This document shows positions 11,613 to 38,676 of a DNA stretch of 64,000 nucleotides, piece by piece. The position numbers and the translations under genes were made by a program. Below the pieces are notes generated by a model, which searched no databases, was not told where the DNA came from, and worked only from the letters and a program-made list of their open reading frames with translations. Within the stretch, counting starts at the first letter, position 1. Each line of letters starts with the position of its first letter. The stretch covers positions 186,001 to 250,000 of the forward strand of contig NZ_JAPHUF010000007.1 in the NCBI RefSeq assembly GCF_026196735.1. Reading direction: 5' to 3'. This DNA is from Sulfurimonas sp. GTDB taxonomy: Bacteria; Campylobacterota; Campylobacteria; Campylobacterales; Sulfurimonadaceae.

Positions 11613-13571
11613 ATGAATATTAGTGAAATTAAAATTAAAAACTTTAGGTTATTAAGAGAAAGTACTCTTGATATGAAAAATGATTTATCATTATTGATTG
11701 GTAGAAATAACAGTGGTAAGACATCATTATTAGTACTATTTGAAAAATTTTATAATAATGAAAATTTTATGTATGATGACTTTAGTTTATATTTACGAGA
11801 TGAACTTCACAATATAAATGAGCATACCAATATATTAGATTTAACAATTCAAATGATAATTGAAATAGATTACAATGAATCAGATGATTTAGAATATTTA
11901 TCAGAATTTATATTAGATCTAGACCCTGATAGTAATATTGTAAAAATACTTTTTGAAGTAACAATAAAAAAGGAAAAAATTATATCTGTTTTGTCATCTT
12001 TAGGTTCAGATGATGAAAAGACAAGATATATAAAAAAACATTTACATAGTTTTTTAACTACTACAATTTATACTTTTGAGAATGATGAAGATTTAGAAGA
12101 GGAAAATAGATATAAACTTATAAAGAAAGAGCTAAAACAGATAAAAAGTCTTATAAATTTTCAAATTATTCATGCCAAAAGAAATGTTTCTAGTTCTGAT
12201 GATAATAAAGGTAAAAAAATACTTTCCACAATGACTACAAAGTATTTTAATAAAAAGAATATTGAAGATCCGAATTTTTCTGAAATTAATAATCAAATGA
12301 TTGAAATGGATAATACTTTAAATTCAACATACGCAACTGAATTTAATGATTTTTTAAGATATGGGAAAGATTTTTTAAATATTGATACATTAAAAGTTAT
12401 ATCTGACCTAGAATCAAATGAAGTAATTCAAAGTTCTTCAAAGGTTGTTTATGGAGATAGTTCAAATTATTTACCTGAACATCTAAATGGTTTAGGTTTT
12501 ATGAACATATTGTACCTTTTATTAGATATAGAGATGAAAAAGGAAAATTTTAAAGAAGAAGTAAAAAGTATAAACCTACTTTTTATAGAAGAACCAGAAG
12601 CTCATACACACCCACAAATGCAATATAAGTTTATAGATGAAATTAAAAAAGTTTTTAGTGAAATTGAAAATTTACAAACAATTATAACAACACATTCTGC
12701 ACAAATAGTTTCAAGGTGTGATTTTAAGGATATTAGATATTTATTAGAAGATAATCAAAATATAAGAATTAAGAATTTTTATTCTGAATTAAAAGATGAA
12801 TATGGCACGGAAGAAGAGCATTTTAAGTTTATAGAACAATATTTAACTCTTCAAGCATCAGAGTTGTTTTTTGCTAATAAAATTATATTTATTGAGGGTA
12901 CTACGGAAAAAATGTTGCTACCTTACTATATAAATATGTATGATGAAGAAAATATTGGAACAACTGATTATATACCAATTTCTTCTCAAAATATTTCAAT
13001 TGTAGAAGTGGGGGCGAATGCAGAAGCATTTGATAAATTAATTAAATTTCTTAATATACAAACATTAATAATTACAGATATTGATACAACAATTAAGACA
13101 ACTAATTCTAGCGGACGGATAATCTATCCAGCAGAAAAAGTATCTGATGCTACCCATACAAGTAATGCAACAATTAAAAAATATTACAACTCTCCTGATG
13201 TAAATTCCGATGACTTTGAACCTTGGTTTATTAACCTTAAAAATGCCAATTTAACTATTACTGATACTAGTATGATTAATATCTTTTATCAAATAGAAGA
13301 AGATTCATATCATGCTAGAAGTTTTGAAGATGCATTTATAAAAGTTAATTTGTTAGAATTAATTACTAACAAAGATGATTTAAGAGGTCTGAAAAATAGA
13401 GATGAATTAATTGAAACAACTGAAATCTATGAGTTAACAGACAGGGTGTTAAATAAAAAATCAGATTTTGCATTTTCATTATTATATTTAGCATTATCAA
13501 GAAATATAGAATGGAATATGCCACAATATATTAGAAATGCTTTAGAATGGATTCAAAATGACGCCTCTTGA
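11613..13571 (+). CDS. OLD-family ATPase/TOPRIM nuclease, GajA-like
   Basis: GajA is the nucleotide-sensing endonuclease of the Gabija anti-phage system. This 652-residue protein has an ABC-type ATPase domain with Walker A GRNNSGKTSL (near 32), Walker B LLFIEEPEAHTHPQ (near 325) and TTHSAQIVSR. A TOPRIM domain follows, with glutamate in FIEGTTEKML (about 428) and ITDIDTT (about 489-491). These are the catalytic acids of class 2 OLD nucleases. The following UvrD-like gene overlaps it by 14 bp, the hallmark arrangement of GajA-GajB. It is somewhat longer than typical GajA, with inserts in the ATPase part. I am confident of the OLD family and fairly confident of Gabija type. Confidence 0.85.
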   Translation: MNISEIKIKNFRLLRESTLDMKNDLSLLIGRNNSGKTSLLVLFEKFYNNENFMYDDFSLYLRDELHNINEHTNILDLTIQMIIEIDYNESDDLEYLSEFILDLDPDSNIVKILFEVTIKKEKIISVLSSLGSDDEKTRYIKKHLHSFLTTTIYTFENDEDLEEENRYKLIKKELKQIKSLINFQIIHAKRNVSSSDDNKGKKILSTMTTKYFNKKNIEDPNFSEINNQMIEMDNTLNSTYATEFNDFLRYGKDFLNIDTLKVISDLESNEVIQSSSKVVYGDSSNYLPEHLNGLGFMNILYLLLDIEMKKENFKEEVKSINLLFIEEPEAHTHPQMQYKFIDEIKKVFSEIENLQTIITTHSAQIVSRCDFKDIRYLLEDNQNIRIKNFYSELKDEYGTEEEHFKFIEQYLTLQASELFFANKIIFIEGTTEKMLLPYYINMYDEENIGTTDYIPISSQNISIVEVGANAEAFDKLIKFLNIQTLIITDIDTTIKTTNSSGRIIYPAEKVSDATHTSNATIKKYYNSPDVNSDDFEPWFINLKNANLTITDTSMINIFYQIEEDSYHARSFEDAFIKVNLLELITNKDDLRGLKNRDELIETTEIYELTDRVLNKKSDFAFSLLYLALSRNIEWNMPQYIRNALEWIQNDAS

Positions 13572-15540
13572 AAACATTCAAAACTGTATTAAAGAAAAAA
13601 AATGTTTTGTTCTTCAAGGTGGAGCTGGTAGTGGTAAAACAGAAACTCTAAAAGAAGCTTTAAAATATATATCTGAAAATTATCCTGATAAAAGAGTAGC
13701 ATGTATTACCCATACAAATTTAGCTGTTGATGAAATAAAATCAAGAGTTGGAGATATCTATACAATTAGTACGATACATTCATTTTTAAATTCAATAATT
13801 AAAGATTATAAAAAGAATATTTTTCAATGTATTTTTGAATTGTTTAAAGTTAAAAAAATAGAACGCAACGAGATAGAATTCTATGATGGTGATGAAAAAG
13901 AGCAGAAAAAAAAAGAACATGATAAATATAAAAAAGTATATGAAAAGTATGCAAAAAAACTTTTTACCATAACTAGTGAAAGTATAGATAAACCTGAGGG
14001 TAAAAGAATTTATGATGCTAATCCTATAACATATAATACAAATTTGAATACTAGAATTGATGAGTTGAATGAAGTTATCAAAAGAGAAATAGAAGCAAAG
14101 GACTTCAATAAGATTAAATATAATGAAACACGATTTGATAGTTATAATGATTTAACTTTCGGACATGATGGATTACTAGAAATTGCTTATCAACTTTTTT
14201 CTACTTTTCCTAAAATAGGTAAAATACTTCAAGATAAATTCGACTATATTTTTATTGATGAATATCAAGACACAAATGAAAATATCATTGAAATATTTTT
14301 AAGTTATTTAGCACAATCACATACAACAACAATAGGTTTATTTGGTGATTCTATGCAAGCTATTTATGAAGATGGAATTGGTAATGTTCATAAATATGTT
14401 TCCGATGGTATTTTAGAAGAAATTATTAAAGAAGATAATTATCGATGTTCAGTTCAAGTAGTAGAATTTATTAACATGTTAAGAAATGATGGCTTAAATC
14501 AACAAGTACAGTTGAAACATACAGAATCTAGCCTTGATGAAAGACAAGGTAATGTGAACTTTTATTATTCAATAGTTGAAAACAAGCCTCATAGTCGAAG
14601 TTCTGATGGAGATAAAGCTCAATATCTTAGAAAACTAAATGAATTAATAGAATATGCGAAATCAACTCAAGATAATTATAAATTATTAATGTTAACAAAT
14701 AAATCTATTTCTCTTGAGGTAAATTTCAATAACCTATATGAGTCATTTGCACAGAGATATCAAGACCCTAAAGAATACATAGATGAAGCTTTGATTAAAC
14801 TACAACTTTTAGAGTTAGTAGAGTTTTGTCAAGCATATGAAAATGGTAATTATAATTATATATTAAGTGAATTAAAAAGAATTGGTTATCCAATAAAAAC
14901 AATAGCTGCTAAAACAAAATTAAAAAGTGATATAGAATATATATTAAACTTTGATGGTGCTGCTATTGAAGTTTTGGATTATGCATTTTCAAATAGTTTA
15001 ATTAAAAAATCTGAGATATTTGACTCATATATAGATAGAAAAGATGTATTTTTACGAAGTTTAGATAATTATGAGTATAGGACATTTAAGACAAATTATA
15101 ATGATGGTATGAACACATTCGCAAGAATGGTAAGTGGAGATGTAACTATAGAAGAAGAACAGTTTAAAGAGCTAGAAAAAGAGCTAAAAAAGGAAAGGCT
15201 ATTTACTAGTTTATTTTCACCTGCTGTAACTTTTCAAGAAGTAATTAATTACTATCTATACATAAATGAAACTACAGATTATATTACCATGCACAAAACA
15301 AAAGGTTCTAGTATTGACAATGTTATTGTTGTATTAGATGAATATTTTTGGATTAAATATGATTTTAGTAAAATTTTTGATCCCGAAATAAATGATAATA
15401 AAAAATTTGACAGCCAAAAGCTTTTTTATGTTGCTTGTTCAAGAACAAAAACCAATTTAACATGTATAAGGTTAATTAAAAGCGATGAGGAAGATTTACT
15501 AAATAATCTTTTTATAAATGCAACTAGAATAGATTTGTAA
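13558..15540 (+). CDS. UvrD/PcrA-like SF1 helicase, GajB-like
   Basis: In Gabija, GajB is an SF1 helicase-like ATPase that partners GajA. This 660-residue protein has Walker A LQGGAGSGKTE (about 20-29), AVDE and THTNLAV segments, Walker B FIDEYQDTNE (about 234), GDSMQAIYE, MHKTKGSSIDNVIVV (motif V-like) and FYVACSRTKTNLT (motif VI). Compared with classic UvrD the 1B/2B regions are divergent and short. Its start lies inside the end of the upstream nuclease gene (14-bp overlap), so translation is coupled and the proteins are presumably made in balance. A 62-bp gap with TATAAT at 15568-15573 then separates it from the restriction-modification operon. Confidence 0.85.
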   Translation: MTPLENIQNCIKEKKCFVLQGGAGSGKTETLKEALKYISENYPDKRVACITHTNLAVDEIKSRVGDIYTISTIHSFLNSIIKDYKKNIFQCIFELFKVKKIERNEIEFYDGDEKEQKKKEHDKYKKVYEKYAKKLFTITSESIDKPEGKRIYDANPITYNTNLNTRIDELNEVIKREIEAKDFNKIKYNETRFDSYNDLTFGHDGLLEIAYQLFSTFPKIGKILQDKFDYIFIDEYQDTNENIIEIFLSYLAQSHTTTIGLFGDSMQAIYEDGIGNVHKYVSDGILEEIIKEDNYRCSVQVVEFINMLRNDGLNQQVQLKHTESSLDERQGNVNFYYSIVENKPHSRSSDGDKAQYLRKLNELIEYAKSTQDNYKLLMLTNKSISLEVNFNNLYESFAQRYQDPKEYIDEALIKLQLLELVEFCQAYENGNYNYILSELKRIGYPIKTIAAKTKLKSDIEYILNFDGAAIEVLDYAFSNSLIKKSEIFDSYIDRKDVFLRSLDNYEYRTFKTNYNDGMNTFARMVSGDVTIEEEQFKELEKELKKERLFTSLFSPAVTFQEVINYYLYINETTDYITMHKTKGSSIDNVIVVLDEYFWIKYDFSKIFDPEINDNKKFDSQKLFYVACSRTKTNLTCIRLIKSDEEDLLNNLFINATRIDL

Positions 15541-15602: not shown

Positions 15603-17438
15603 ATGAAACAAAAAGAAAATGTAATGGACGAGCAGAGTATAAATGATATAAACTATGAACTTTTAAAAAAGCAATTTCCTCATGCTGTTAGTATTGATGA
15701 AGAGGGTAAATATATTATTGACCCTCAAAAGTTACAGATGAGTTTAGACCCTTCAAAGGCTGATATAAAAGAAGATGGTTATGGTTTAAACTGGGTTGGT
15801 AAAAAAGAGGCTTATCATACTGCGTTTTCTAAAAACTATAAAGTTTTAAAACCTTTAAACGATGACAATAGTAGGAACTGGGATACTACGGATAATATCC
15901 TTATTAAAGGGGATAATCTTGATGCCTTGAAGATACTTCGCCAAAACTATTTTGAAGCTATCAAGATGATATATATAGACCCACCTTACAATACTAAAAA
16001 TGATGGATTTGTTTATAACGATGATTTTACATCAAACACAGAAGAAACTCTTGAAGAGTTGGGATATGATAAAGAGTATGTTGATTATATTGAAAACATA
16101 CAAGGAGCAAAAACTCATAGCGGATGGTTGAGTTTTATGTACCCCAGACTTTTGCTTGCTAGTGATTTACTTAAAGATGATGGTGTTATTTTTATCTCTT
16201 GTGATGACAACGAAGTATCAGAATTAAAACTATTGTGTAATGAAATATTTGGTGAAGAAAATTTTATAGAACAGTTAGTATGGAAGCGTCGTTCTACTCC
16301 TCCAAATGATAGAGTTATAGGTAAAAATCATGAATATATCCTTTCATATGCTAAAAATATTGAAAATATAAAGATATTTCTTCAAAAGAGAAGTGATAAG
16401 CTTAATTCAAGATATGCAAACCCGGACAATGATCCAAGAGGTTTGTGGGTAGCTTCAGATTTAAGTGCAAACGGGAAGGGTGGTCGTTTAGCTGAATCAT
16501 GTTTGTTTGATATAGTAAATCCAACTACAAAAGATAGTTATTCTCCTCCTCAAAATAAATGTTGGTTGTATAATGAGGAGAAAGTAATTAAATTAATAAC
16601 AGATGGGCAAATTGGTTTTAGGAAAAGTACTGGTACTCCATTCTTAAAAAGGTACTTATCAGAAGTACGACAAGGATCAACATTAGCTACTATTTTAGAT
16701 AACCATGGTTTTTCACAAGATTCAGCTAAAGAGCTAAGAGATTTATTTCAAAATGATTTTTTTGATTTTCCAAAACCACTTAAATTAATTAAAACACTTT
16801 TAATAACTGCTCTTAGTAAAGATGATATAGTCCTAGACTTCTTTTCCGGAAGTGGAACAACAGCTCACGCAGTTATGGATTTAAATGCACAAGATAATGG
16901 AAGTAGAAAATTTATAGCAGTTCAATGGGCAGAAGAGACACCTGAAAAAAGTGAAGCTAAGAAAGCTGGATATGATACTGTGTTTGACATCACTCAAGAG
17001 AGAATAAAAAGAGCTGGAGATAAAATAGCTAAGGGTGATATTGGCTTCAGAACTTTTGAAATAGTCGAAGATGTAAAACAAAAGATATATCAAAAATCTT
17101 TAGAAGATGTAGATCAAAAAGATTTATTGGCATTTACTCAAAGCATAGTAGAATCAACAGAAGATATACTTTTTAATTTAATTGTAGCTGAGAGTTTACC
17201 TCTCAGCTGCAAGATAGAATCCCTTGTTGAAGATAAATTATACAAAGTGGATAATGTCGCTTTTGTACTTGGTGATTTAACAATAGATGAACTAATTAGT
17301 AAACTCAAAAGTAAAAAAGAGTTAGAATATATAACCGTATATTCTCCAAATATAAGTGATGATAAGTTTACACTTGAACTTGAAAGTGCAGTGAGTAGCA
17401 TAGGTATAAAATCTGACAAGCTTAGATTTAGAGGTTAG
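15603..17438 (+). CDS. Type III restriction-modification DNA methyltransferase (Mod)
   Basis: Mod recognises the target and transfers a methyl group from S-adenosylmethionine to adenine. The 611-residue protein has the catalytic motif DPPYNTKNDGF (from residue 126) before the AdoMet motif DFFSGSGTTAHAVMDLN (from about 412), the beta-class order of type III and related N6-adenine methylases. The central region between them is the target-recognition part. AAAGG precedes the ATG; an alternative start is residue 8 (MDEQ). The nuclease subunit gene begins 6 bp after the stop. I see no simple-sequence repeat in the coding region that would indicate phase variation. Confidence 0.92.
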   Translation: MKQKENVMDEQSINDINYELLKKQFPHAVSIDEEGKYIIDPQKLQMSLDPSKADIKEDGYGLNWVGKKEAYHTAFSKNYKVLKPLNDDNSRNWDTTDNILIKGDNLDALKILRQNYFEAIKMIYIDPPYNTKNDGFVYNDDFTSNTEETLEELGYDKEYVDYIENIQGAKTHSGWLSFMYPRLLLASDLLKDDGVIFISCDDNEVSELKLLCNEIFGEENFIEQLVWKRRSTPPNDRVIGKNHEYILSYAKNIENIKIFLQKRSDKLNSRYANPDNDPRGLWVASDLSANGKGGRLAESCLFDIVNPTTKDSYSPPQNKCWLYNEEKVIKLITDGQIGFRKSTGTPFLKRYLSEVRQGSTLATILDNHGFSQDSAKELRDLFQNDFFDFPKPLKLIKTLLITALSKDDIVLDFFSGSGTTAHAVMDLNAQDNGSRKFIAVQWAEETPEKSEAKKAGYDTVFDITQERIKRAGDKIAKGDIGFRTFEIVEDVKQKIYQKSLEDVDQKDLLAFTQSIVESTEDILFNLIVAESLPLSCKIESLVEDKLYKVDNVAFVLGDLTIDELISKLKSKKELEYITVYSPNISDDKFTLELESAVSSIGIKSDKLRFRG

Positions 17439-17444
17439 TAGTTT

Positions 17445-20390
17445 ATGAGCTTAAAAATAAAGTTTGATAGATTAGATTATCAAGAAAAAGCTGTTGATAG
17501 CATAAGTGATGTATTTAAAAATATTTCATTTAAGCCAAATGAAAATCGTAAAAGTAATCCATCGTTTGATTTACAAAGTTCTAAAACTATTTTAGTACAA
17601 AACATTACAGATACAAGAGAATCTAACAAAGTAGATATAGGAGAAATATCTATAAAAGATGAGTTAGTTATAGATACTCTTATGGAAACTGGTACTGGTA
17701 AAACTTTTACTTTTTTAGAATCTATTTATAGACTCAATCGTGACTATGGACTATCAAAATTTATCATCCTTGTGCCATCAAATCCTATACGACAAGGTAC
17801 GATAAAAAATATAAAAATCACCAAAGAGTTCTTTGTAAAAGAGTACGGTAAAAATATATCTGCATTTAACTACAGTGAAAAAACAATTTCAAATTATATC
17901 AATGCTAGTGATCAAAATATATCTGTACTAATATCTACTTATCAATCATTTAACAGTGCAAGTAACAAGATAAATAAAAAAGGTGTTGAGCAAAGCTTGA
18001 TAGGTCGTGCAAAGAGTTATATGGAAGCTATAGCATACTTGAAGCCTGTAATTATTATAGATGAGCCTCATAGGTTTGAGGGTAAGCAAACAGCAAAGTA
18101 TCTAAAAGAGTTTAATCCACTTTTTACACTTAGATTTGGAGCGACTTATAAAGGTGATGTTTATAAAAATCTAATCTATACTCTTGATAGTGTAGATGCT
18201 TTTTCACAAGGTTTAGTTAAAGCTATCACAGTTGATACAGTTGGAAATGAAAATGTTGATAATCATACAATTTTATTTAAAAAAGTAACTGGTGCAAATC
18301 AAAAAGACTATGAAGTTACTATCGAGTACAAGGATATTAACTCAAAATCTAAGAGTCTAAAACTTAAAAAAGGTGATAACTTAGGTGTGAGAGCTGACAT
18401 AGATTATCTCAATGGTTACATCATAGAAAAAATTACAAAGAGTGAAGTTCTCTTTGTTAATGGTATATCTCTACCTCTTGGAGAGAGTGAAAGTTACGGT
18501 GTCCTTTTAGATGCGATGCAGACGCAAATAGTTGACACTGCTATAAAAAACCACTTTGAGAGAGAAGAAGAACTTTTTAAGATGGATATAAAGGCTCTTT
18601 GTCTGTTCTTTATAGACAGGGTTGATAAATACCTACTAGATGATGGAAGTGCTGGAGACTTAGCTAAACTTTTTGAAAAACTATATTTGAAAAATTTAAA
18701 AGATGTACTGGCTAGAGTTGATTTAGATAGTGAATATAAGAAGTATCTCTTAAAAACAAAAGAAAGTCCAAAAGAATTGCATAGTGGGTACTTTGCAAAA
18801 TCTAAAAATCTAAAAGATGAAGAAGAAGCAATAGATCTTATACTTAATAAAAAAGAAGAGTTACTATCTTTTGATAGTAACTTGCGATTTATATTTTCTC
18901 AATGGGCTTTACAAGAGGGTTGGGATAATCCAAACGTTATGACACTTTGTAAGTTAGCACCAAGTAATTCTAAGATATCTAAACTCCAACAAATAGGTCG
19001 TGGTTTAAGACTTGCAGTCAATCAAGATGGCAAAAGAGTTACAAAAGATGATAATGATTTTGATTTTATTAATGAACTGTTTGTGGTGGTTCCATCAACT
19101 GAAAGTAACTTTGTAAGTTCTATTCAAAATGAAATAAGTGAACATAGTGTTAAACAAGTCTCTAAGTTATTCAATGAAGATATTATGGTAGAGAATGGTA
19201 TCGCTACTTCTTCAAGGTCTGCTGTTCGGCTTTTAGATGTACTAGAAGACTTAAAGTTTATAGCCATAGATGATGAAGATATGAGCGAGATAGTTATCTC
19301 TAAAGAGCAATATAGTTCAAAATCAAAAGAGCTAGAACTTTTAGATATAAAAGGCTGTGATAGTCAAAAACTTAAAGAGTATTTTGATAGTTATTTTAAA
19401 ACTACTAGCAGAATCAAAGCAAAAGATAGAAGTGGTAAAAAAGATAAGGGCAAAATAAAAATAGATAAAGATAAATTTAAAAAGTTTAAAAACCTATGGG
19501 ATACTTTAAATTATGATGCAGTAGTAAAGTATGATATTAACACTTCTGAGCTGATTGAAAAATCAGTTCAGAAGATAGACAGTGATTTTTTTATTAGTGG
19601 TCAAGATATTATAATTAAAAGAGATAGCCATGTAGAGGATGAAAATAAGCATGATAGTGAGAAAGATAGTGTGAAAGTACAAACTCACTCTATATTTACT
19701 ATCTATGAGTTCATTAAAACTCTATCTAATAATACAAAACTAAGTTTACAGACTATAGCAAGTGTGCTTCATGGCATAAAAAAAGAGAAGTTTGAACTCA
19801 TAGCAAAAAATGAAAACTTAGCACTTAAAAAGATAGAAGAACAGCTTGTTAGTGCTATATACGATACGATAATTAATAAAATATCTTACGATATAAAAGA
19901 GATAAAAACTTGTAGTACATCATTAACGGATAAAGATGGAAATGTAAAAGATTTTATAAATGTTGGAAGCTTAGGAGTAGAGACTTATAAAATAACAAAA
20001 CCAAGTATAAAAGAAAAATCTATATATGCTGAGAATTTTATGGAAGTAGATAGTAATATAGAAAAACTTACCATTGATGAGTCTGATGACAAGAAAATAA
20101 CGGTATTTGCTAAATTGCCAAAGGTTAATATTCCTACAGCTCATGGACGAAGTTATAATCCAGACTTTGGATATGTAATAAAACAAAATGATAAAAAAGA
20201 GTTGTATTTTATAGTAGAAACAAAAGGTTATGATAACTTTGACGAGATAAGTACTAAAGAAAAGCTTCAAATAAAAAGTGCTGAAGCTTTTTTTAAACAG
20301 CTAAAAGATCAAGGTGTAAATGTAGAGTATAGAACTAAGCTGAATAGTCCAGAGCTATCACAGATGATAAGTGATATTCAAAAAAAATAA
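17445..20390 (+). CDS. Type III restriction enzyme subunit (Res)
   Basis: Res is the ATP-driven translocase and nuclease that works with Mod to cut unmodified DNA. The 981-residue protein has METGTGKTFTFLES (Walker A, about 80), IIDEPHRFEG (DEPH box, about 206), SQWALQEGWDNPNV and QQIGRGLRLAV (motif VI), followed by a carboxy-terminal nuclease: PDFGYVI near 906 and FIVETKG near 925, the PD...ETK core of a PD-(D/E)XK fold. Length is normal for Res. It follows mod by 6 bp, and its TAA shares a base with the ATG of the next gene (TAATG). This ties the restriction pair translationally to the next gene, which is not a usual type III component. Confidence 0.92.
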   Translation: MSLKIKFDRLDYQEKAVDSISDVFKNISFKPNENRKSNPSFDLQSSKTILVQNITDTRESNKVDIGEISIKDELVIDTLMETGTGKTFTFLESIYRLNRDYGLSKFIILVPSNPIRQGTIKNIKITKEFFVKEYGKNISAFNYSEKTISNYINASDQNISVLISTYQSFNSASNKINKKGVEQSLIGRAKSYMEAIAYLKPVIIIDEPHRFEGKQTAKYLKEFNPLFTLRFGATYKGDVYKNLIYTLDSVDAFSQGLVKAITVDTVGNENVDNHTILFKKVTGANQKDYEVTIEYKDINSKSKSLKLKKGDNLGVRADIDYLNGYIIEKITKSEVLFVNGISLPLGESESYGVLLDAMQTQIVDTAIKNHFEREEELFKMDIKALCLFFIDRVDKYLLDDGSAGDLAKLFEKLYLKNLKDVLARVDLDSEYKKYLLKTKESPKELHSGYFAKSKNLKDEEEAIDLILNKKEELLSFDSNLRFIFSQWALQEGWDNPNVMTLCKLAPSNSKISKLQQIGRGLRLAVNQDGKRVTKDDNDFDFINELFVVVPSTESNFVSSIQNEISEHSVKQVSKLFNEDIMVENGIATSSRSAVRLLDVLEDLKFIAIDDEDMSEIVISKEQYSSKSKELELLDIKGCDSQKLKEYFDSYFKTTSRIKAKDRSGKKDKGKIKIDKDKFKKFKNLWDTLNYDAVVKYDINTSELIEKSVQKIDSDFFISGQDIIIKRDSHVEDENKHDSEKDSVKVQTHSIFTIYEFIKTLSNNTKLSLQTIASVLHGIKKEKFELIAKNENLALKKIEEQLVSAIYDTIINKISYDIKEIKTCSTSLTDKDGNVKDFINVGSLGVETYKITKPSIKEKSIYAENFMEVDSNIEKLTIDESDDKKITVFAKLPKVNIPTAHGRSYNPDFGYVIKQNDKKELYFIVETKGYDNFDEISTKEKLQIKSAEAFFKQLKDQGVNVEYRTKLNSPELSQMISDIQKK

Positions 20391-29256: not shown

Positions 29257-29499
29257 ATGGATCAGGATTTAAATATTACCGAAACAGCAGCCAATACAAT
29301 AGCTGTAAATGTAAATACGGCTTTTATTGTAATTAGTACTGCTATTGTTTTTGCTCTTGCTATATGGGGATATAAAAAATATAAAGGTATGAATATAATT
29401 AAGAAGACTATTAATGAATTTGGTGAAATTAGTCAAAACGGTAAAGACAATATTATTGATGATGTAGATAATACTAACGGAAAAATAAGTCAAAGTTAA
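29257..29499 (+). CDS. Small single-span membrane protein, first gene of NACHT–radical SAM operon
   Basis: The 80-residue product has one hydrophobic segment (about 22-40, TAFIVISTAIVFALAIWGY) followed by basic KKYKG, so the amino end should face out and the polar, Asn/Asp-rich tail should lie in the cytoplasm. There is no signal cleavage site. AGAAGG lies 6 bp upstream. Its stop is immediately followed by the ATG of the NACHT ATPase gene. No effector domain is recognisable in that ATPase, so this membrane protein could be its effector (for example membrane disruption) or its anchor; that is inference from position only. Confidence 0.7.
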   Translation: MDQDLNITETAANTIAVNVNTAFIVISTAIVFALAIWGYKKYKGMNIIKKTINEFGEISQNGKDNIIDDVDNTNGKISQS

Positions 29500-32046
29500 A
29501 TGAGTAACATAGTAAAAGATACAGATAATCGTTGGGGTGTAATTAATCAAACTACAATTAGAAATTATTTGATTTTTAAACCAAAAAAGTGGCTAAAAAA
29601 AACATTCCAAAAAGATAAATACTATCAAAGTTTACATCTAATATTGAGACATCAATTAAATAAAAAAGTACAAACTTTTAAAGACAATAAAAAGTATATT
29701 CCTGATATTTTTTTAGAGCTTGATGATGTAAAAGAAAAGCTTAGATATATCACACAACCAATACTGTTTTATAAAAAAAACATAGATGAAATTAAGAATG
29801 TAGAGTTTTATTTTTTTAATGAAGTATTAGAAAATCTTGGCATTACTAAAAAAAACCTTGATATCTCAATAAGGTATTCAAGTCCTAAAACACAAAGTGA
29901 ACTAAATGAAACAATAGAACAATTGATGAATGATTTTTTAAAGTTTAAAGAATCTATACCAAACTTTGATGATAGAAAAGAAATGGAGAATAAGCTTTCA
30001 GAAGAAAAATATAAGTTACTCATTAAAGAACAAGGACTTAACCATAGATTTGGACGGTTTTTAGACAATTTTGAAAAAAAATTTAGACTACTTCAAAAGC
30101 AGTTTATATTACTAACTGAACAAGCAGGACAAGGTAAAACAAATCTAGTATGTGACTTTGTAGAGAATGTAATGTTAAAAAAGAATCTATTAGGAGTTAT
30201 GTTTACTGGCAATGAATTCAATAATTTACATAGAGATAAAATTGAAGATATTATTTTAAAAGAAATATATGGTTTTGAATCAGGTATAGAGTTTAATGAA
30301 TTTTTTGATGATATTGAATACTTATGTAAATCTAATAACACTACTTTTACAATAATCATAGATGGTCTAAATGAAAATATTAATATAAAATATTTTTCTA
30401 AAGAGCTCTATTCATTTGTTGAAGAAATATTGAAAAAAGATTTTATTAGATTGATTTTTACTTGTCGTTCTGAATACTTTGATGATAGGTTTAAAAACTT
30501 TAAAGAACCATCATTTTTAAATAAGATGGAAATGCAAGAAAGTTTTATGAATCGATATAAAAGGTATAGAGAAGAGTTTCCTGAACACTTAGAAGACAGG
30601 CTAATTTCTTCATATATGAAATTTTTTCAAATAAAAAGTACACTATCCCCTAATGTACGTGCTACACTAGCTAATAACTTTTTATTACTAAGAATGTTTA
30701 GTGAAGTATATGGCACAAAAGACAATCCAACTGCCCCTGTGGAACAAGTATATAATATATATAAAGATGATTTATTTAAAAAATATTTTGAGTTCAAACA
30801 TGAACAAATAAACGTCAAAACTAAATACGGTTCAACAGAGTTGAAAAAATTATTTGAATCTATCCTGAAGTATATGGTTGAGACTAATATCTACACAAAT
30901 ATATCATTAGACAACATTGAAGATATTGATTTGGAACTACTAGAACATATTATTGACGAAGATATATTTTTTAGAAAAGATTTAATTAAAGATGAAAGTA
31001 GTATATATGCAAACAGTGAAGTTCTGAATTTTACATTTGATGAGTTTAGAGATTATTTATTAGCTGATTATATAGTAAATAATGAGAAGATTGATCCAAA
31101 AATATTCTTAGAGTCTATTGATGAAAATATGACAATTAGAGAGGGTGTTGAAAGATACTTATTTTTTAAATCAAGAAAAAAAATGTATAAAGTTAAGCTG
31201 CAATTTTTAGAAGAGTTAGAATATTATGATAATCTATTCTTGAGTAATATATTTTCTGTTAGTGACGAAGATATTAATGATGATGACATTCATAAAATAA
31301 AAGATTTGTTTATTCAAGATGTTGTTTTTTCAAAAAAAATTATTAATCATCTGATGTATAGACATATTACGAGGCACTATATAAAACTTAATATATTTAC
31401 TTTATTTGATATTATTTTATCATTAAATGATGATGAGTATAGTACATTTGTTAGTGAAAAGTATAAAATAAAATATGATTATTATAGCTATCAAAGAGAA
31501 AGAAAAGGAGGCTTTTTACAGCTACTAGAAGACTTATATGGTATTTTAGAAACTAGAAATTTTTCAAAAGAATATCAACTACACAATGTTTTTGAGTTTA
31601 TGTTTTTGCTTTTAGGTGTAACAGACGAAACAGCTTATGGTTCTTCTGTATATGAACTAACTGAACTTTTAGAAAATTATATAGATAAATATCCAGAAAA
31701 TGCAAAAAAAATATTATTGAAATATGAAGATATAAATATAGAAAAAATAAAACTTGAAATATGGAAATTATTGAATTATTATATAAATAAGCAGATAGAC
31801 TTTGATAATGAGTTTTATAAAGAAACCTTTAAAAAATTTATTGGCTTAGAAGATGGAATTTTAAAAAATAATATATTGAGATTTCTAGAAAAATGTTATA
31901 AATTAGATAGTAGTTGGTGCACTTCTGAAGAGCATAGTTTTTTTAAAGATTTAGAAAATGAAGAAAAAACGAGAATGCAGTTTTTTCGTGATGTAGCTGA
32001 TGGAAAGGCAGATTTATCTGAATTATTAGAGGATCTTGATATATGA
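29500..32046 (+). CDS. NACHT/STAND-family NTPase, candidate anti-phage sensor
   Basis: STAND ATPases are signalling switches; in bacteria many sense phage and trigger an effector. The 848-residue protein has Walker A TEQAGQGKTNL (about 205-213), Walker B FTIIIDGLNEN (about 283-293, DGLNE in place of DGLDE) and the arginine/sensor strand IFTCRSEYFDDRF. The later LNFTFDEFRDYLLADYIV (about 508-526) is the segment typical of NACHT winged-helix regions. The amino 200 residues are helical and basic, with no recognised effector domain. The carboxy 300 are helical and probably form the sensor. It begins right after the small membrane-protein gene and overlaps the next gene by ATGA, so all five genes should be co-translated. 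Confidence 0.8.
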   Translation: MSNIVKDTDNRWGVINQTTIRNYLIFKPKKWLKKTFQKDKYYQSLHLILRHQLNKKVQTFKDNKKYIPDIFLELDDVKEKLRYITQPILFYKKNIDEIKNVEFYFFNEVLENLGITKKNLDISIRYSSPKTQSELNETIEQLMNDFLKFKESIPNFDDRKEMENKLSEEKYKLLIKEQGLNHRFGRFLDNFEKKFRLLQKQFILLTEQAGQGKTNLVCDFVENVMLKKNLLGVMFTGNEFNNLHRDKIEDIILKEIYGFESGIEFNEFFDDIEYLCKSNNTTFTIIIDGLNENINIKYFSKELYSFVEEILKKDFIRLIFTCRSEYFDDRFKNFKEPSFLNKMEMQESFMNRYKRYREEFPEHLEDRLISSYMKFFQIKSTLSPNVRATLANNFLLLRMFSEVYGTKDNPTAPVEQVYNIYKDDLFKKYFEFKHEQINVKTKYGSTELKKLFESILKYMVETNIYTNISLDNIEDIDLELLEHIIDEDIFFRKDLIKDESSIYANSEVLNFTFDEFRDYLLADYIVNNEKIDPKIFLESIDENMTIREGVERYLFFKSRKKMYKVKLQFLEELEYYDNLFLSNIFSVSDEDINDDDIHKIKDLFIQDVVFSKKIINHLMYRHITRHYIKLNIFTLFDIILSLNDDEYSTFVSEKYKIKYDYYSYQRERKGGFLQLLEDLYGILETRNFSKEYQLHNVFEFMFLLLGVTDETAYGSSVYELTELLENYIDKYPENAKKILLKYEDINIEKIKLEIWKLLNYYINKQIDFDNEFYKETFKKFIGLEDGILKNNILRFLEKCYKLDSSWCTSEEHSFFKDLENEEKTRMQFFRDVADGKADLSELLEDLDI

Positions 32047-32450
32047 TAATTAATAGCAATGATAAAAGTCATTTAGTTCTTTTGCCTAAAAAAATATCTA
32101 AAGATAAGTTTTTACTTCAAGCTAAAGTTCGTAAAGGTAGTTACTTTTATAAAAGGTTAGAAAGTATATATGTTTCTTTGACATCATCTACAACTAATCT
32201 AGAAGAAGAATATAAACTATACTACACTGAGTATGAAAGTTTTGAAGAATTTTTATATCATAAATACCCTCATTTAGACGAAAAAAGCCTGGATTTAATC
32301 AACAATAGTTTATGTACTAAGCAGTATAATTTTGTACGAGGATACATGTATGAACTAAGTGATTATCAATTACATATGCTTATTGATTACTCTGATGAAT
32401 TTATAGGAAAAATTAATAATTTACTTAAGGCTGAATTATATGAAAATTAA
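32043..32450 (+). CDS. Small unknown protein in NACHT–radical SAM operon
   Basis: This 135-residue protein overlaps the NACHT stop (ATGA) and itself overlaps the next gene by 11 bp. I recognise no family. It begins with a strand-rich part (HLVLLPKKISKDKFLLQAKVRKGSYFYKRLE) and continues with acidic helices rich in Tyr and Leu. No membrane segment. Possible roles are an adaptor between the ATPase and the small NSSST protein, or a carrier that presents a peptide to the radical SAM enzyme, but there is no clear RRE-type motif to support the latter. Confidence 0.65.
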   Translation: MIINSNDKSHLVLLPKKISKDKFLLQAKVRKGSYFYKRLESIYVSLTSSTTNLEEEYKLYYTEYESFEEFLYHKYPHLDEKSLDLINNSLCTKQYNFVRGYMYELSDYQLHMLIDYSDEFIGKINNLLKAELYEN

Positions 32451-32856
32451 AACTGACTTTGTTACAAATAGCTCATCTACATCATTTATTATAATGACAA
32501 AAGATGACTGGAATAAAGATGACTTTATAAGTTTAATGGGTGTAGAGAAAGACTCTGATTTCTATGAGATGATGAATGGGTTATATCACACACTAAGTGA
32601 TGCAATGGAAGATATTGAAGTAGCTATTGCAAGTGAATATTGGAGAGATGCATATAAAACTATTGAAGAATTTATTACCAAAGAATATTCAAAAGAAGTA
32701 TATGAAAAATATTTGCTTGCTAAAAAAGAGAATAAAAAAATTTATGTAGGTAGATTAAGTAGTGATGATGAAGCTTTCGCAGCATATATTTGTGTTGATT
32801 ATTTTGAAGAAGAAGATGAGAAAATTTATTTTAACTATACAAATTGTTATTGGTAA
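32440..32856 (+). CDS. Small protein with DFVTNSSSTSF amino terminus, possible radical SAM substrate
   Basis: The 138-residue protein opens MKIKTDFVTNSSSTSFIIM. This conserved start (often with five serines) recurs at the head of many otherwise unrelated uncharacterised bacterial proteins, as far as I recall. The rest is acidic and helical, ending in a beta-like YFEEEDEKIYFNYTNCYW. The invariant N-terminal Asn/Ser/Thr block is unlikely to be there for folding alone and could be a recognition or modification site. The radical SAM/SPASM gene starts 3 bp after the stop, the arrangement of a precursor and its modifying enzyme. The substrate role is a hypothesis; the motif and spacing are seen directly. 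Confidence 0.65.
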   Translation: MKIKTDFVTNSSSTSFIIMTKDDWNKDDFISLMGVEKDSDFYEMMNGLYHTLSDAMEDIEVAIASEYWRDAYKTIEEFITKEYSKEVYEKYLLAKKENKKIYVGRLSSDDEAFAAYICVDYFEEEDEKIYFNYTNCYW

Positions 32857-32859
32857 ATT

Positions 32860-33894
32860 ATGAATTCAGTTATATTTAAAAATTATCCAGAAGAGAAATA
32901 TAAAATCATATTTAATCAAAAAACTGGATTTTTTGCTAGAGTTGAAGAAAAAGATACACCTGAAATATTTTGGGCTAAAAGTGGTCCAGAACTTTTAGAT
33001 ATATCTATTACTAATTGGTGTGATAAAGAATGTTCTTTTTGTTACAGAAACTCAAATGAAGATGGCAAGCATATAACGATAGAAGATTATGAAACTATAA
33101 TGCTAGAAGCATCCAAAAACAATGTTTTACAAGTAGCTTTAGGTGGAGGTAATCCTAATCAACATCCAGACTTTATAAAGCTTATTCAACTAACCAGAGA
33201 TAAATATAACATAGTCCCTTCCTATACAACTAATGGAAGAGGTTTGAGTAAAGAAGTATTAGAAGCTACAAAAAAATACTGTGGTGCCGTTGCTGTGAGT
33301 GCATACGAACCATTTGATGAAACAAGACGAGCTGTATTTAGACTATCAGATCACAATATTAAAGTAAATCTTCATTATGTATTAGATAGCCAATCTATAG
33401 AAAGAGCTATAGATTGGCTAGAAAATGGTCATCCTATTCTTGATATGTGTAATGCTATTATTTTTCTCAATTACAAACCAGTAGGAAAAGACAAAGACTA
33501 TAGTTTACTTTTAAAGTATAGTCCTCTACTAAAGAAATTCTTTGATTTGGTAGATAATAATGTAAATTCTTTTAAAATAGGATTTGATAGCTGTATGGTC
33601 TCAGGAATAGTTCAAAATATGAAAAATATAAATTTGACTTCACTTGAGCCATGTGACGCAGGAAGATTCTCTGCTTATATTTCAGAGGACTTAAAAATGT
33701 ATCCTTGCTCATTTATGATGGAGCATTATGAAGGTGAAAGTTTAAGAGAAAAATCCTTTATGGATATATGGAATAATTCAAATTCATTTAAAGAAATACA
33801 AAATAATTTGGGTGGAAGTAGGTGTGAAAGTTGTATGCAAAAAAATAATTGTTTAAATGGCTGTCCATTTTTGAGAGAAATTGATTTGTGTTAG
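32860..33894 (+). CDS. Radical SAM enzyme with SPASM domain
   Basis: The 344-residue enzyme has the [4Fe-4S] motif CDKECSFC (C54, C58, C61), then GGGNP in the position of the usual GGE SAM-binding motif. The carboxy end carries a full SPASM pattern for auxiliary clusters: C265, C283, C322, C325, C331, C335 and the last residue C344 (CESCMQKNNCLNGC). SPASM enzymes mostly modify peptides or proteins, for example by forming thioether or carbon-carbon links. It follows the NSSST-protein gene by 3 bp and ends the five-gene operon. An A+T-rich imperfect hairpin at about 33900-33940 separates it from the converging phosphoesterase gene. The family is firm; the substrate is inferred. Confidence 0.88.
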   Translation: MNSVIFKNYPEEKYKIIFNQKTGFFARVEEKDTPEIFWAKSGPELLDISITNWCDKECSFCYRNSNEDGKHITIEDYETIMLEASKNNVLQVALGGGNPNQHPDFIKLIQLTRDKYNIVPSYTTNGRGLSKEVLEATKKYCGAVAVSAYEPFDETRRAVFRLSDHNIKVNLHYVLDSQSIERAIDWLENGHPILDMCNAIIFLNYKPVGKDKDYSLLLKYSPLLKKFFDLVDNNVNSFKIGFDSCMVSGIVQNMKNINLTSLEPCDAGRFSAYISEDLKMYPCSFMMEHYEGESLREKSFMDIWNNSNSFKEIQNNLGGSRCESCMQKNNCLNGCPFLREIDLC

Positions 33895-36304: not shown

Positions 36305-37114
36305 ATGTCAAAACTACCACTTACAATACAACAGTTACAAGAACAAGCACCAGTACTCTTTACAGAGCAACCACATTTCCAAACTAGCGACAAGTACCAT
36401 TTTGTTTCATCAATAGACGTCATAAATGAATTAAAGTCTCATAATTGGCATCCCGTTTCAGTGCAAATTTCATCTGTAAAAGACGAAGATAAAGAAGGCT
36501 ACCAGCGTCACGTTGTACGTTTTCGTCATTTCGATGATCTGCTTAGTCCAAAAGAGAATGCAGTTGAGCTTTTGCTGTTTAACAGCCATGACAGAAGCAC
36601 GGCTTTTAGTATATCTGCTGGAATATTTAGGTATGTATGCTCAAATGGTTTAATAATATCAGATAATATTTTTAGTAGTTATAAAATAAAGCACATAGGA
36701 GATAGAGCAAACGACATCCATATAGCGATAAATAAGATAACATCTTTTAAGCCACAGCTTGAACATAAAATCAATACACTTGAATCTATCAAGCTATCAA
36801 CTGGTGAAAAAGAAGCGTTCGCTAAATCTAGTTTAGAGCTAAGATTTCCGAAACACCTAGAGGTTGACTACAAAGACCTACTTGTACCACACCGTGATGA
36901 AGATCAAAAAGATGACCTCTATACGACACTAAACATAATACAAGAGAACCTATTATCAGGAAATGTATCAGGTGTTAACAAAGAGACAGGCAGACGTTTT
37001 ACATCTCGCGAGATTACATCTATAGCAAAAGATAAAGATATTAATCAGGGACTATGGGAAATAGCAGAACGCATTAGTTCTATAAAAGTGCCAGATATGG
37101 CATTAGCTGCTTAA
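36305..37114 (+). CDS. DUF932 family phage/plasmid-like protein
   Basis: The 269-residue protein matches the DUF932 pattern: SDKYHFVSSIDVINELKSHNWHPVSVQ, then RHVVRFRH, AVELLLFNSHDRSTAFSISAGIFRYVCSNGLII and a helical carboxy half with KLSTGEKEAFAKSSLELRF. Members occur in phages, plasmids and integrative elements; no biochemical role is established. AAAGG is the ribosome site. It leads a run of closely spaced small recombination genes (37126 to 39327), so it is presumably expressed with the Gp157-like and Rad52-like genes during replication or transfer of the element. Confidence 0.75.
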   Translation: MSKLPLTIQQLQEQAPVLFTEQPHFQTSDKYHFVSSIDVINELKSHNWHPVSVQISSVKDEDKEGYQRHVVRFRHFDDLLSPKENAVELLLFNSHDRSTAFSISAGIFRYVCSNGLIISDNIFSSYKIKHIGDRANDIHIAINKITSFKPQLEHKINTLESIKLSTGEKEAFAKSSLELRFPKHLEVDYKDLLVPHRDEDQKDDLYTTLNIIQENLLSGNVSGVNKETGRRFTSREITSIAKDKDINQGLWEIAERISSIKVPDMALAA

Positions 37115-37125
37115 TCTATTCTCTT

Positions 37126-37371
37126 ATGCAAAATATACACAAAACACTAGAGAGCATCATAATAGAGATAAAGTTAATTCAACTACAGCTACACCTAGCT
37201 AAAAAGAGTGCTAAGAAAATATATACACTTCAAAGCACTCCATCAAAAGTTCAACTACACATTGAGCATTCACTCCATAGTCTTAATCATCTGATAGCTC
37301 ATATAGATGATTTAAAAATAGATGCAGAATTAAAACATTCTGCTCGTCACCGAACAAAGGAAATACAATGA
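37126..37371 (+). CDS. Small helical hypothetical protein
   Basis: The 81-residue product starts 11 bp after the DUF932 gene and overlaps the next gene by 4 bp (ATGA). It is a single helical chain with heptad-like leucine and isoleucine spacing (ESIIIEIKLIQLQLHLAKKSAKK) and many His residues toward the end (HSLHSLNHLIAHIDD). No family recognised. Its tight coupling to the Gp157-like gene suggests a shared role in the recombination module. Confidence 0.5.
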   Translation: MQNIHKTLESIIIEIKLIQLQLHLAKKSAKKIYTLQSTPSKVQLHIEHSLHSLNHLIAHIDDLKIDAELKHSARHRTKEIQ

Positions 37372-37961
37372 AAATGACAAATTACCGTTTACAGACAGAA
37401 ATTGAAAATATCAATGTAAATAAACAAGAGTGGTTTAAAAACTACGTTAGACAGGTGCTTGAGAGCAATAAGCCATATCACGCAAAGGCTGACTATATTG
37501 GTCTTAGTATAAAAGAGTTAGATAATAAAATAAGTTATATAGCAGAAGATATCAAAGAGCTACAAGCACTTAAGAAAAACCTTACAAGTGCTAAATCAGT
37601 AGCACTAGAAGCTACAGCTTCTGTATTGGCAGAGTACGGAATTGATAGATTAGACGGTACATCAATCTCTTCTATAACAATCACACCAAAAAAGACAACA
37701 CTCACAGAGACTTTTAAAATAAAAGATTCAGGAGTAGATGCTCTTATAAAACTTGGATTTTATACAGTGATTGTAGATGAAAATAGTGTAAAAGAAGCTA
37801 TGAAAACTTTGGATGGTATGAATGAGATAGATGAGTTTGTAGAAGTTGGTGTAACAAAACAAGAGGTGCCAGCTCGTATAAAAGTTAATGCTAGACGTTC
37901 TAGTCAAAATAATCAAGCCACAGAACTACTAAATTTAGTAGATTCGCAAGAAGCGGCATAA
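37368..37961 (+). CDS. Gp157-like phage recombination-module protein
   Basis: The 197-residue protein has an amino-terminal helical part with coiled-coil features (KELDNKISYIAEDIKELQALKKNLTSAK, about 45-72) and then a strand-rich part (ISSITITPKKTTLTETFKI). The ending FVEVGVTKQEVPARIKVNARR resembles the Gp157 family, usually encoded beside single-strand annealing proteins. The match is by layout and local motifs. It precedes the Rad52-like gene by 10 bp with AAAGGAG between. Confidence 0.5.
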   Translation: MKMTNYRLQTEIENINVNKQEWFKNYVRQVLESNKPYHAKADYIGLSIKELDNKISYIAEDIKELQALKKNLTSAKSVALEATASVLAEYGIDRLDGTSISSITITPKKTTLTETFKIKDSGVDALIKLGFYTVIVDENSVKEAMKTLDGMNEIDEFVEVGVTKQEVPARIKVNARRSSQNNQATELLNLVDSQEAA

Positions 37962-37971
37962 AGGAGATAAA

Positions 37972-38676
37972 ATGCTATCAGAAAATCAAATAAAAGCACT
38001 TTCGTATAACCTTGATGAAAGTCGTGTTAAGACTATAGACAAAGCAGGGATGAGCTTTAAGTATATTGAGACTTATGACTCTATTAATGTTGCAAACACC
38101 ATATTCAGCTATATGTGGGACTATACTATTACAAGGCTTGAAGAAGTAAACCGTGAAATTAACCAAAACTCAAACCACGTTATTACATTCAGTGCCATTG
38201 TAAAAGTAAAGATTTATGATAATCAGCGAAATTGTATAGAGCGTGAAGATACTGGTGTAGGTATAGGAACAGCTCGCTCAATTGGTGAAGCTATAGATAA
38301 TGCAAGCAAAAGTGCAGTAAGTGATTCACTCAAACGTGCTTTACGCTCAATGGGTGCTCAATTTGGAAATAATTTGTATTCAAAAACACCTACTACAAGC
38401 AAAAATCAACAACAAAACTATCAACAACCTACACAGTTACAACAGCCACAGCAATACTCACAACAAAATCAACAGCAGACACAACCATTTCATAATCCAA
38501 ATGATTTTTCATCCCTTTATTCTATTGGGCTTACGATAATGGAACAAGGTCAAAATCTCGTAATTATCGGTGATGATATATTCAGCAAGAAAGATAGTAT
38601 TAAAGCTTGTGGTTTCCGTTGGAGCGGGGAAAATAAGATGTGGTATAAGCCTATTGAGCAGCAACAAGCTGCATAG
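37972..38676 (+). CDS. Rad52/22-type single-strand annealing protein
   Basis: Rad52-family proteins bind single-stranded DNA and anneal complementary strands during phage or element recombination. In this 234-residue protein, residues 20-140 carry the family signature: KAGMSFKYIETYDSI, ITFSAIVKVKIY, CIEREDTGVGIGTARSIGEA and SAVSDSLKRALRSMGAQFGNNLY. A glutamine-rich linker (about 143-182, mostly CAA/CAG codons) joins this to a short carboxy domain reading SKKDSIKACGFRWSGENKMWYKP, which resembles the DUF5710-type motif. AAAGGAG precedes the ATG at ideal distance. It probably serves replication or repair of the element, and could also drive gene exchange with related elements. Confidence 0.85.
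   Translation: MLSENQIKALSYNLDESRVKTIDKAGMSFKYIETYDSINVANTIFSYMWDYTITRLEEVNREINQNSNHVITFSAIVKVKIYDNQRNCIEREDTGVGIGTARSIGEAIDNASKSAVSDSLKRALRSMGAQFGNNLYSKTPTTSKNQQQNYQQPTQLQQPQQYSQQNQQQTQPFHNPNDFSSLYSIGLTIMEQGQNLVIIGDDIFSKKDSIKACGFRWSGENKMWYKPIEQQQAA

What the first reader, a model, noticed from the sequence alone, without database searches (positions are those of the whole stretch)
29257..33894. Five-gene operon joining a NACHT ATPase to a radical SAM/SPASM enzyme and a possible peptide substrate
Seen: a one-span membrane protein, a STAND/NACHT ATPase (Walker A near 207, DGLNE near 288, FDEFRDYLLADY), two small proteins and a SPASM radical SAM enzyme, all overlapping or within 3 bp. Known: NACHT/STAND proteins are bacterial immune sensors; SPASM enzymes mostly modify peptides. 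Inference: a defence system in which a modified small protein is the trigger, effector or licence of the ATPase, and the membrane protein may execute killing. I know of no described anti-phage system with this set. It lies inside an element full of other defence genes.
Basis: partly seen in the sequence, partly recalled or inferred. Interest (0 to 1): 0.92.

Follow-up and report, generated by a model that had tools for sequence, protein, structure and literature searches.

The report
Bacterial immune receptor with modified partner protein
A bacterial relative of our NLR immune sensors travels as a fixed gene set with a small protein carrying an unusual front tail and an enzyme that probably alters that tail; many phages carry a related tail-and-enzyme pair on otherwise unrelated proteins, so this looks like an undescribed protein-modification system shared by phages and one kind of immune system.

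Summary
The operon is real. Four of its genes (STAND/NACHT ATPase, a 'mid' protein, a protein starting MKIKxDFV[TS]NSSSTSF, a radical SAM/SPASM enzyme) stand in the same order in all 12 STAND-bearing loci fetched. Plasmid searches with rSAM, NSSST and STAND each returned the same 7 of 72,556 records. The fifth gene (membrane protein) was seen only in the window; 10 relatives instead have an N-terminal SMEK (Mrr-type) nuclease, one another domain: effectors change, the core stays. Mid is a diverged paralogue of NSSST without the tail. The pair also exists without STAND: virus-labelled contigs hold up to seven NSSS-tailed proteins per stretch with a related rSAM, and phages RB16 and Lw1 and the Vibrio phage D479 record carry tail and rSAM. 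Among neighbouring tailed genes only 10 of 257 body pairs match, so the tail is probably what the rSAM recognises or modifies. Best reading: an Avs-like defence system whose sensor or adaptor subunit is tail-modified. Defence activity, chemistry and trigger are inferred. Nine searches of open-licence papers found no description of the NSSS-rSAM pair; a related idea (FxSxx peptide, rSAM, AP-ATPase) is in print.

The parts
29257..29499 (+). 80-aa protein with one transmembrane span; seen only in the window; possible effector in trans where relatives have an N-terminal domain
   Evidence: upstream of STAND in 10 of 11 relatives no ORF of similar hydropathy (maximum 1.47 against 2.14); L030 starts at the contig end and could not be checked
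29500..32046 (+). STAND/NACHT NTPase, 848 aa, Avs2-like NTPase core, no recognised N-terminal effector domain
   Evidence: NCBIfam Avs2 5.8e-17 and PADLOC Avs2 3.4e-22, far below the Avs2 cut-off; motifs; model nearest NLRC4 and Avs4
30124..30141 (+). Walker A, residues 209-214 AGQGKT
32043..32450 (+). mid protein, 135 aa, paralogue of the NSSST protein without the tail motif
   Evidence: hhalign score 46.4 against at most 18.6 in 200 column shuffles; mid profile finds the window NSSST protein at E 1.8e-4
32440..32856 (+). NSSST protein, 138 aa, probable rSAM substrate
   Evidence: tail residues M1 K2 D6 N10 S11 S12 T14 S15 invariant in 11 aligned sequences, the window included; model pLDDT 87.3 with residues 1-9 under 50
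32455..32487 (+). tail motif DFVTNSSSTSF, residues 6-16: probable recognition or modification site
32860..33894 (+). radical SAM/SPASM enzyme, 344 aa
   Evidence: family alignments; trees
33019..33042 (+). CxxxCxxC radical SAM cluster motif, residues 54-61
   Evidence: C54 and C61 in 97 of 97, C58 in 83 of 97

Best explanation
It is a mobile, Avs-like STAND/NACHT defence system with a dedicated protein-modification step. The rSAM/SPASM enzyme alters the disordered N-terminal tail (core [TS]-N-S-S-[ST]) of the NSSST protein. The modified NSSST protein, probably paired with its tail-less paralogue (mid), is the sensor or adaptor subunit that gates the ATPase. On infection the ATPase assembles and fires an exchangeable effector: an N-terminal SMEK/Mrr-type nuclease in 10 of 12 loci, another N-terminal domain in one, and in the window probably the separate one-span membrane protein. 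SHOWN by sequence: the conserved four-gene unit, the change of N-terminal domain, the paralogy of the two small proteins, the association of tail and rSAM, and the defence-gene neighbourhood of the window. INFERRED: that the tail is modified, that the product gates STAND, that the system stops phage, and the role of the membrane protein.
For: Four genes in the same order in the 12 STAND-bearing loci fetched (window, L024, L025, L221, L026, L027, L030, L032, L034, L036, L054, L055). The same 7 of 72,556 plasmid records found by rSAM, NSSST and STAND. Tail and rSAM: 61 of 119 NSSS stretches of virus-labelled contigs hold the rSAM, 61 of 61 with all these genes on one strand, 34 of 61 within 28 bp; from the rSAM side 66 of 80 loci (strict motif; reversed-ORF control 0 of 3,209) or 69 of 80 (relaxed; control 5 of 3,209) hold NSSS genes. 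Bodies match in only 10 of 257 pairs of tailed neighbours. Paralogy of mid and NSSST. SMEK: PF21941 E 2e-33 to 5e-45 in the 4 STAND proteins scanned; STAND profile matches a solved Mrr domain at 3.6e-42. Defence neighbours: GajA/GajB, type III RM, GmrSD, AbiEii.
Against: No experiment. Eleven of the 12 loci came from searches with the rSAM or the tail, so their completeness is partly by selection; only starts from STAND. The pair occurs without STAND on many viral contigs and in two MAG contigs, so its own role need not be defence; in MAG contig L022 the NSSS genes lie on the strand opposite to the rSAM. 11 of 80 rSAM loci lack a recognisable NSSS gene; 22 of 50 whole viral records with NSSS lack a detected rSAM (many are fragments). 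The six NSSTE-type rSAMs have lost the SPASM cysteines, and more than half of 97 rSAMs lack the last three cysteines, so one common chemistry is not assured. The membrane protein has no seen relative. No effector domain was recognised in the window's own STAND.
Confidence: 0.5

Rival explanations
1. Bait or mimic: the STAND system keeps its own version of a phage-type NSSS-rSAM module so that phages carrying such proteins, or proteins that act on them, trip the receptor.
For: Related pairs are common on virus-labelled contigs and occur in RB16, Lw1 and the Vibrio phage D479 record. The STAND-linked rSAMs are a separate clade, as an old captured module would be.
Against: No link seen between any phage module and any STAND system; I did not find the STAND-linked NSSST body in phage NSSS proteins, and mostly their bodies differ even from each other.
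Confidence: 0.2
2. The modified NSSST protein is the toxin or effector itself and STAND controls its release or maturation.
For: Small protein beside a maturase; predicted peptide toxins or signals with rSAM in FxSxx systems (PMC7159879 section 24).
Against: It is modelled as a folded protein after the tail, has a tail-less paralogue, and most STAND relatives already carry a nuclease domain. No peptidase among the five genes.
Confidence: 0.12
3. The rSAM makes a small antiviral molecule (viperin-like) or modifies STAND; the NSSST protein is a carrier or chaperone.
For: Weak matches to viperin models (40.6 bits NCBIfam, 43.3 bits PADLOC).
Against: The NCBIfam viperin cut-off is 180 bits, and mycofactocin, WgkB and NirJ2 models score higher, though also below their cut-offs; the tail association holds without STAND.
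Confidence: 0.07
4. Hitch-hiking: a selfish or anti-defence NSSS-rSAM module merely linked to a STAND gene.
For: The module is widespread on viral contigs without STAND.
Against: All 12 loci keep the four genes with near-constant overlaps in the 7 measured, the window included; rSAM, NSSST and STAND return the same 7 plasmid records.
Confidence: 0.06

Closest known systems
Avs2 and Avs4 (AVAST) STAND defence proteins
   Same: STAND NTPase core; profile hits to Avs2 and fold hits to Avs4; changing N-terminal effector (for Avs recalled)
   Different: 848 aa against profile lengths of 1317 (NCBIfam) and 1375-1576 (PADLOC); far below the Avs2 cut-off; partners mid, NSSST and rSAM
FxSxx peptide, rSAM/SPASM and AP-ATPase systems (predicted; Kaur et al. 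2020, PMC7159879, passages and section 24)
   Same: rSAM/SPASM enzyme, small variable protein and a STAND-class ATPase in one conflict system
   Different: There a metallopeptidase releases a C-terminal FxSxx peptide, in VMAP or standalone systems; here the conserved motif is N-terminal, no peptidase gene is in the unit and the protein is modelled as folded
bNACHT25, for which host DnaJ mediates phage sensing (PMC12169576; only title and start of abstract seen)
   Same: A NACHT protein that senses through a partner protein
   Different: DnaJ is a host protein; here the partners are encoded in the operon
rSAM/SPASM peptide maturases: 5v1q (listed as Radical SAM; SuiB by recall), PqqE, SkfB
   Same: Radical SAM plus SPASM; best solved relatives
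   Different: The likely substrate here is the tail of proteins of 62-310 aa; many family members lack part or all of SPASM
One maturase with many precursors sharing a leader, such as ProcM and prochlorosins (recalled, no call)
   Same: One enzyme, several neighbouring substrates with a common N-terminal part and different remainders
   Different: Lanthipeptide chemistry and cleaved peptides; here a radical enzyme and apparently folded proteins
SMEK nuclease domain of short Argonaute systems (PMC10810196, SMEK passages)
   Same: N-terminal domain of 10 of 12 STAND proteins
   Different: Fused to STAND, not APAZ; absent in the window

Membership tests
Avs2 (AVAST type 2) | NCBIfam NF041813 score of at least 1000 bits | tested here: not met
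   60.9 bits
Avs2 (AVAST type 2) | Shared STAND NTPase core | tested here: met
   solved Avs2 9o4e E 1.1e-11 with the family profile
STAND/NACHT NTPase | Walker A and acidic Walker B conserved across the family | tested here: met
   AGxGKT and DGxNE columns invariant in 10 sequences
STAND/NACHT NTPase | Pfam NACHT gathering score (26.7 bits) | tested here: inconclusive
   no NACHT row for the window protein; five relatives 18.4-26.1 bits
Radical SAM/SPASM enzymes | PF04055 and PF13186 over cut-off, CxxxCxxC | tested here: met
   57 and 29.5 bits; C54, C61 in 97 of 97, C58 in 83 of 97
FxSxx peptide-processing system | C-terminal FxSxx motif and a metallopeptidase gene | tested here: not met
   P0004 ends NCYW; no peptidase family over cut-off among the five proteins or the four neighbours scanned
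Prokaryotic viperin | NCBIfam viperin_w_prok cut-off of 180 bits | tested here: not met
   40.6 bits
RiPP precursor and maturase | Leader-core precursor, modified and cleaved | not testable with these tools
   needs mass spectrometry; the model shows a folded body after the tail
Anti-phage defence system | Protection against phage | not testable with these tools
   context only: defence genes around the window operon

The most novel reading that the evidence does not exclude
NSSS-rSAM is an undescribed, mainly phage-borne protein-modification system: one radical SAM enzyme puts the same radical-chemistry mark on a shared N-terminal tail of many otherwise unrelated small proteins (up to seven in a fetched stretch; also in T4-like phages RB16 and Lw1). 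One clade of bacterial NLR-like receptors has captured it and uses a tail-marked protein with a tail-less paralogue as the tripwire of a STAND ATPase, possibly as bait for phages that use the same mark.
Probability: 0.35. Interest if true: 0.97.

Novelty: new variant of a known kind. Interest (0 to 1): 0.9.

Why it matters
If right, it adds post-translational radical chemistry as a component of an NLR-like immune receptor, and it gives one handle (the NSSS tail and its enzyme) on a large set of hypothetical phage proteins. Tail and rSAM are both encoded by phage Lw1, found on E. coli BL21(DE3) (PMC3861415, listing only), so the modification can be looked for directly by mass spectrometry in a laboratory strain.

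Tried and rejected
Rejected: (1) the membrane protein as part of the core: no ORF of similar hydropathy upstream of STAND in 10 of 11 relatives; L030 not checkable. (2) Avs2 membership. (3) Viperin. (4) A known fold for the NSSST body: no PDB or BFVD match at E <= 0.001, best VIA-align Z 3.9, rmsd 4.9, 84 residues; this does not show a new fold. (5) C141 as universal hydrogen donor (an epimerase idea from recall): 18 of 18 rows but 87 of 97 in the wider set, left open. (6) Two of the ten stretches of the rSAM DNA pattern (L029, L037) were chance, and one of two hits in the window's phylum sample (G112) reads NRSSW, not NSSS. (7) A solved relative for the N-terminal domain of L054 STAND: none convincing.

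Led nowhere: the genome-contig scan with the rSAM gave 2 loci; among 99 relatives the rSAM gave, besides the window, one match under 1e-18 (G058, no NSSS gene in its 2-kb stretch) and otherwise weak matches (2.2e-6 or worse); an NSSS protein of L021 against plasmids gave nothing; an NSSTE protein against phages gave one weak RNA-polymerase match in two records.

Literature: searches listed no paper that I recognised as describing the NSSS tail or a STAND-NSSST-rSAM unit; I saw only the listed rows. One search gave one unrelated hit (hemp seeds). The library holds open-licence PMC papers only. PMC9960720 (passages) names the rSAM of phage Rpl1 a predicted peptide-modifying enzyme; PMC7824862 and PMC10853773 (term searches) gave nothing on this.

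Full report
Observation. The five ORFs are present as described, on one strand, with gaps of 0, -4, -11 and +3 bp. The 848-aa protein carries STAND motifs that are invariant in an alignment of ten sequences, the window included, and resembles Avs2 by profile (5.8e-17 NCBIfam, 3.4e-22 PADLOC) without reaching the Avs2 cut-off. Its model (mean pLDDT 67.9) matches NLRC4 and Avs4 best. The 344-aa protein is a radical SAM/SPASM enzyme. The two small proteins match no Pfam or NCBIfam family over cut-off.

A conserved four-gene unit. tblastn of 72,556 plasmid records with the rSAM (E <= 1e-20), with an Agrobacterium NSSST protein (E <= 0.01) and with the window STAND protein (E <= 1e-5) each returned the same seven records. 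I opened four of the seven; the other three encode the same NSSST protein as the first (100% identity). The four near-identical Agrobacterium records count once; L025 and L221 are near-copies (848 of 888 STAND residues); the STAND gene of L026 is interrupted; the rSAM of L036 is cut by the end of the stretch. Apart from the plasmid search with STAND, these loci were found through the rSAM or the tail, so completeness is partly by selection. Overlaps are nearly constant in the six relatives measured: -4 throughout, -11 (L032 -17), 0 to +7. The STAND-linked rSAMs form one clade (11 rows, UFBoot 95, SH-aLRT 90, in a 45-row tree with viral rows chosen from a larger quick tree), next to the rSAMs of two MAG arrays. 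In a sample of 397 genomes of the window's phylum the tail pattern had two exact hits, of which one, in the window's own genome, is real (variants of the pattern would be missed), so the unit was probably acquired horizontally. In 297 genomes of the phylum of G458 (the L021 genome) three had hits: G458, G550 and G691.

Effector exchange. Ten of 12 STAND proteins begin with a SMEK domain: by Pfam for the four relatives scanned that have it (L024, L036, L034, L030), by record annotation for L024-L027, by alignment for L032 and L055, and by 170 of 180 identical N-terminal residues to L025 for L221. A profile of the STAND alignment matches the solved Mrr domain of an Mrr-APAZ Argonaute system at E 3.6e-42, and PADLOC calls the region a pAgo-associated REase (three of three SMEK proteins scanned). 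SMEK is treated as a nuclease domain in PMC10810196 (passages). L054 has a different N-terminal domain (no Pfam match there; weak PADLOC match 9.3e-5; no solved relative). The window has no recognised one, and its first residues are poorly modelled, but it has the extra one-span membrane gene directly in front; no similar ORF precedes STAND in 10 of 11 relatives. That this gene replaces the nuclease is an inference.

Two paralogues, one with the tail. Profile comparison of mid and NSSST gives probability 93.9 and score 46.4; 200 column-shuffled controls reach 18.6 at most, the reversed control 12.8, and without the first 20 columns of the NSSST alignment the score is still 41.7. A mid profile finds the window's NSSST protein at E 1.8e-4. 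So each system holds one copy with and one without the tail. The NSSST model (pLDDT 87.3) has residues 1-9 under 50, a strand from residue 13, and a last strand just before the C-terminal aromatic residue, which is nearly invariant.

The tail and the enzyme go together widely. Of the other 58 I submitted 54; 50 records were searched whole and 28 have an rSAM match in the record, a few of them partial or broken; many records are fragments. A second tail type (D[VI]ITNSSTE) was found in 11 stretches, 8 with an rSAM match in the stretch and one more (L061) from the contig of L023, which has it. From the other side, of 80 rSAM loci (the best 80 of 217, four of them STAND systems) 66 hold a strict and 69 a relaxed NSSS gene; reversed-ORF controls gave 0 and 5 of 3,209. 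The two samples share contigs and are not independent. The 11 without include a group with a different neighbour protein. In 44 loci with three or more NSSS genes only 10 of 257 pairs have bodies that match by BLAST, while the 18-residue tails are 73% identical; the tail figure is partly by construction, because genes were picked by the motif. The informative part is that neighbours sharing the tail share little else. So I take the tail as the enzyme's recognition or modification site. This is inference; no modification has been seen.

Phages. RB16 encodes two proteins that begin MKIRSGFVSNSSSSSF (RB16p106, RB16p111) and a distant family rSAM (RB16p156). Lw1 has the same tails and an rSAM. tblastn of RB16p106 hits 174 phage records with nearly the same organism-name counts as the rSAM search (Klebsiella 114 and 108, Enterobacter 20 and 20, Cronobacter 14 and 14, Citrobacter 11 and 11, Escherichia 9 and 9); the rSAM search also hits six Thermus phages, which this protein does not, and record-by-record overlap was not computed. 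The record of Vibrio phage D479 has five NSSS proteins in the parts read and an rSAM. In RB16 the rSAM lies about 20 kb from the NSSS genes, so adjacency is not universal.

Chemistry. C54 and C61 of the radical SAM cluster are in 97 of 97 sequences and C58 in 83; C245, C265, C283 and C325, which could bind an auxiliary cluster, are in 91; the last three cysteines are in 43 or 44. The six NSSTE rows lack the SPASM cysteines. The reaction cannot be named from sequence. Nearest solved enzymes by sequence are 5v1q (SuiB by recall), PqqE and SkfB.

Context. The neighbourhood holds an RmuC protein (9891), GajA/GajB (11613-15540), a type III restriction-modification pair (15603-20390), a helicase (22557), GmrSD (27489) and an AbiEii homologue (34820). 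Three relatives (L030, L034, L036) lie on virus-labelled contigs beside ORFs that I read as integrase or recombination genes without a family search; four lie on plasmids.

Comparison and novelty. The closest published idea is the association of FxSxx peptide, rSAM/SPASM and AP-ATPase predicted by Kaur et al. 2020 (passages and section 24). It shares the logic of an rSAM-modified small protein in a STAND-class system, but its defining C-terminal motif and metallopeptidase are absent here. One enzyme serving many substrates with a common leader is known from lanthipeptides (recalled). So I file the system as a new variant; the NSSS-rSAM family itself, one tail on many proteins, was not described in any paper that my nine searches listed (open-licence PMC only), and no tested member matches a curated Pfam or NCBIfam family by its tail or body over cut-off; PHROGs holds part of it as phrog_7397 and phrog_7293, both of unknown function.

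Verdict. The gene-set claim is strong; that the rSAM acts on the tail is likely (about 0.85 in my judgement); that the modified protein gates STAND in defence is the best guess (0.5).

Noticed in passing
L275 (phage RB16, NC_014467.1 66000-72000), L277 (phage Lw1): Two NSSS-tailed proteins lie on either side of a vWA-like protein (RB16p109, phrog_2426) in T4-like phages; RB16p106 also matches phrog_132 (head-tail adaptor) at 3.3e-10.
   Followed up: partly
L225, L232, L258, L260: Viral family rSAMs without NSSS neighbours; L225, L232 and L258 sit beside proteins with an NMN(E/D)D(N/D)xED(F/H/S)-like stretch, perhaps another substrate.
   Followed up: no
L021 5369-9131, L022 4966-9001: Two MAG contigs (titled Deltaproteobacteria, labelled Myxococcota by the tree) carry 3 and 4 NSSS genes near a family rSAM with no STAND gene in the fetched stretch; in L022 the NSSS genes are on the opposite strand.
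   Followed up: partly
292 NSSS proteins of the fetched loci: The last residue is strongly enriched for H (51), G (48), Y (33) and W (15); some loci overlap, so copies repeat.
   Followed up: no
L023 6398-8684: The rSAM gene of this viral contig appears split by an intein-like insert and an HNH-type ORF (my reading).
   Followed up: no
L026 4566-7179: The STAND gene of Rhizobium sophoriradicis pCC511_3 is split into two overlapping ORFs while mid, NSSST and rSAM are open.
   Followed up: no
window 9891-35936: Dense defence island: RmuC, Gabija, type III RM, helicase, GmrSD, AbiEii homologue and a calcineurin-like phosphoesterase around the operon.
   Followed up: partly
window 36305-38676: A DUF932 protein and a Rad52/22-family protein downstream; such genes often lie on mobile elements (recalled).
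   Followed up: no
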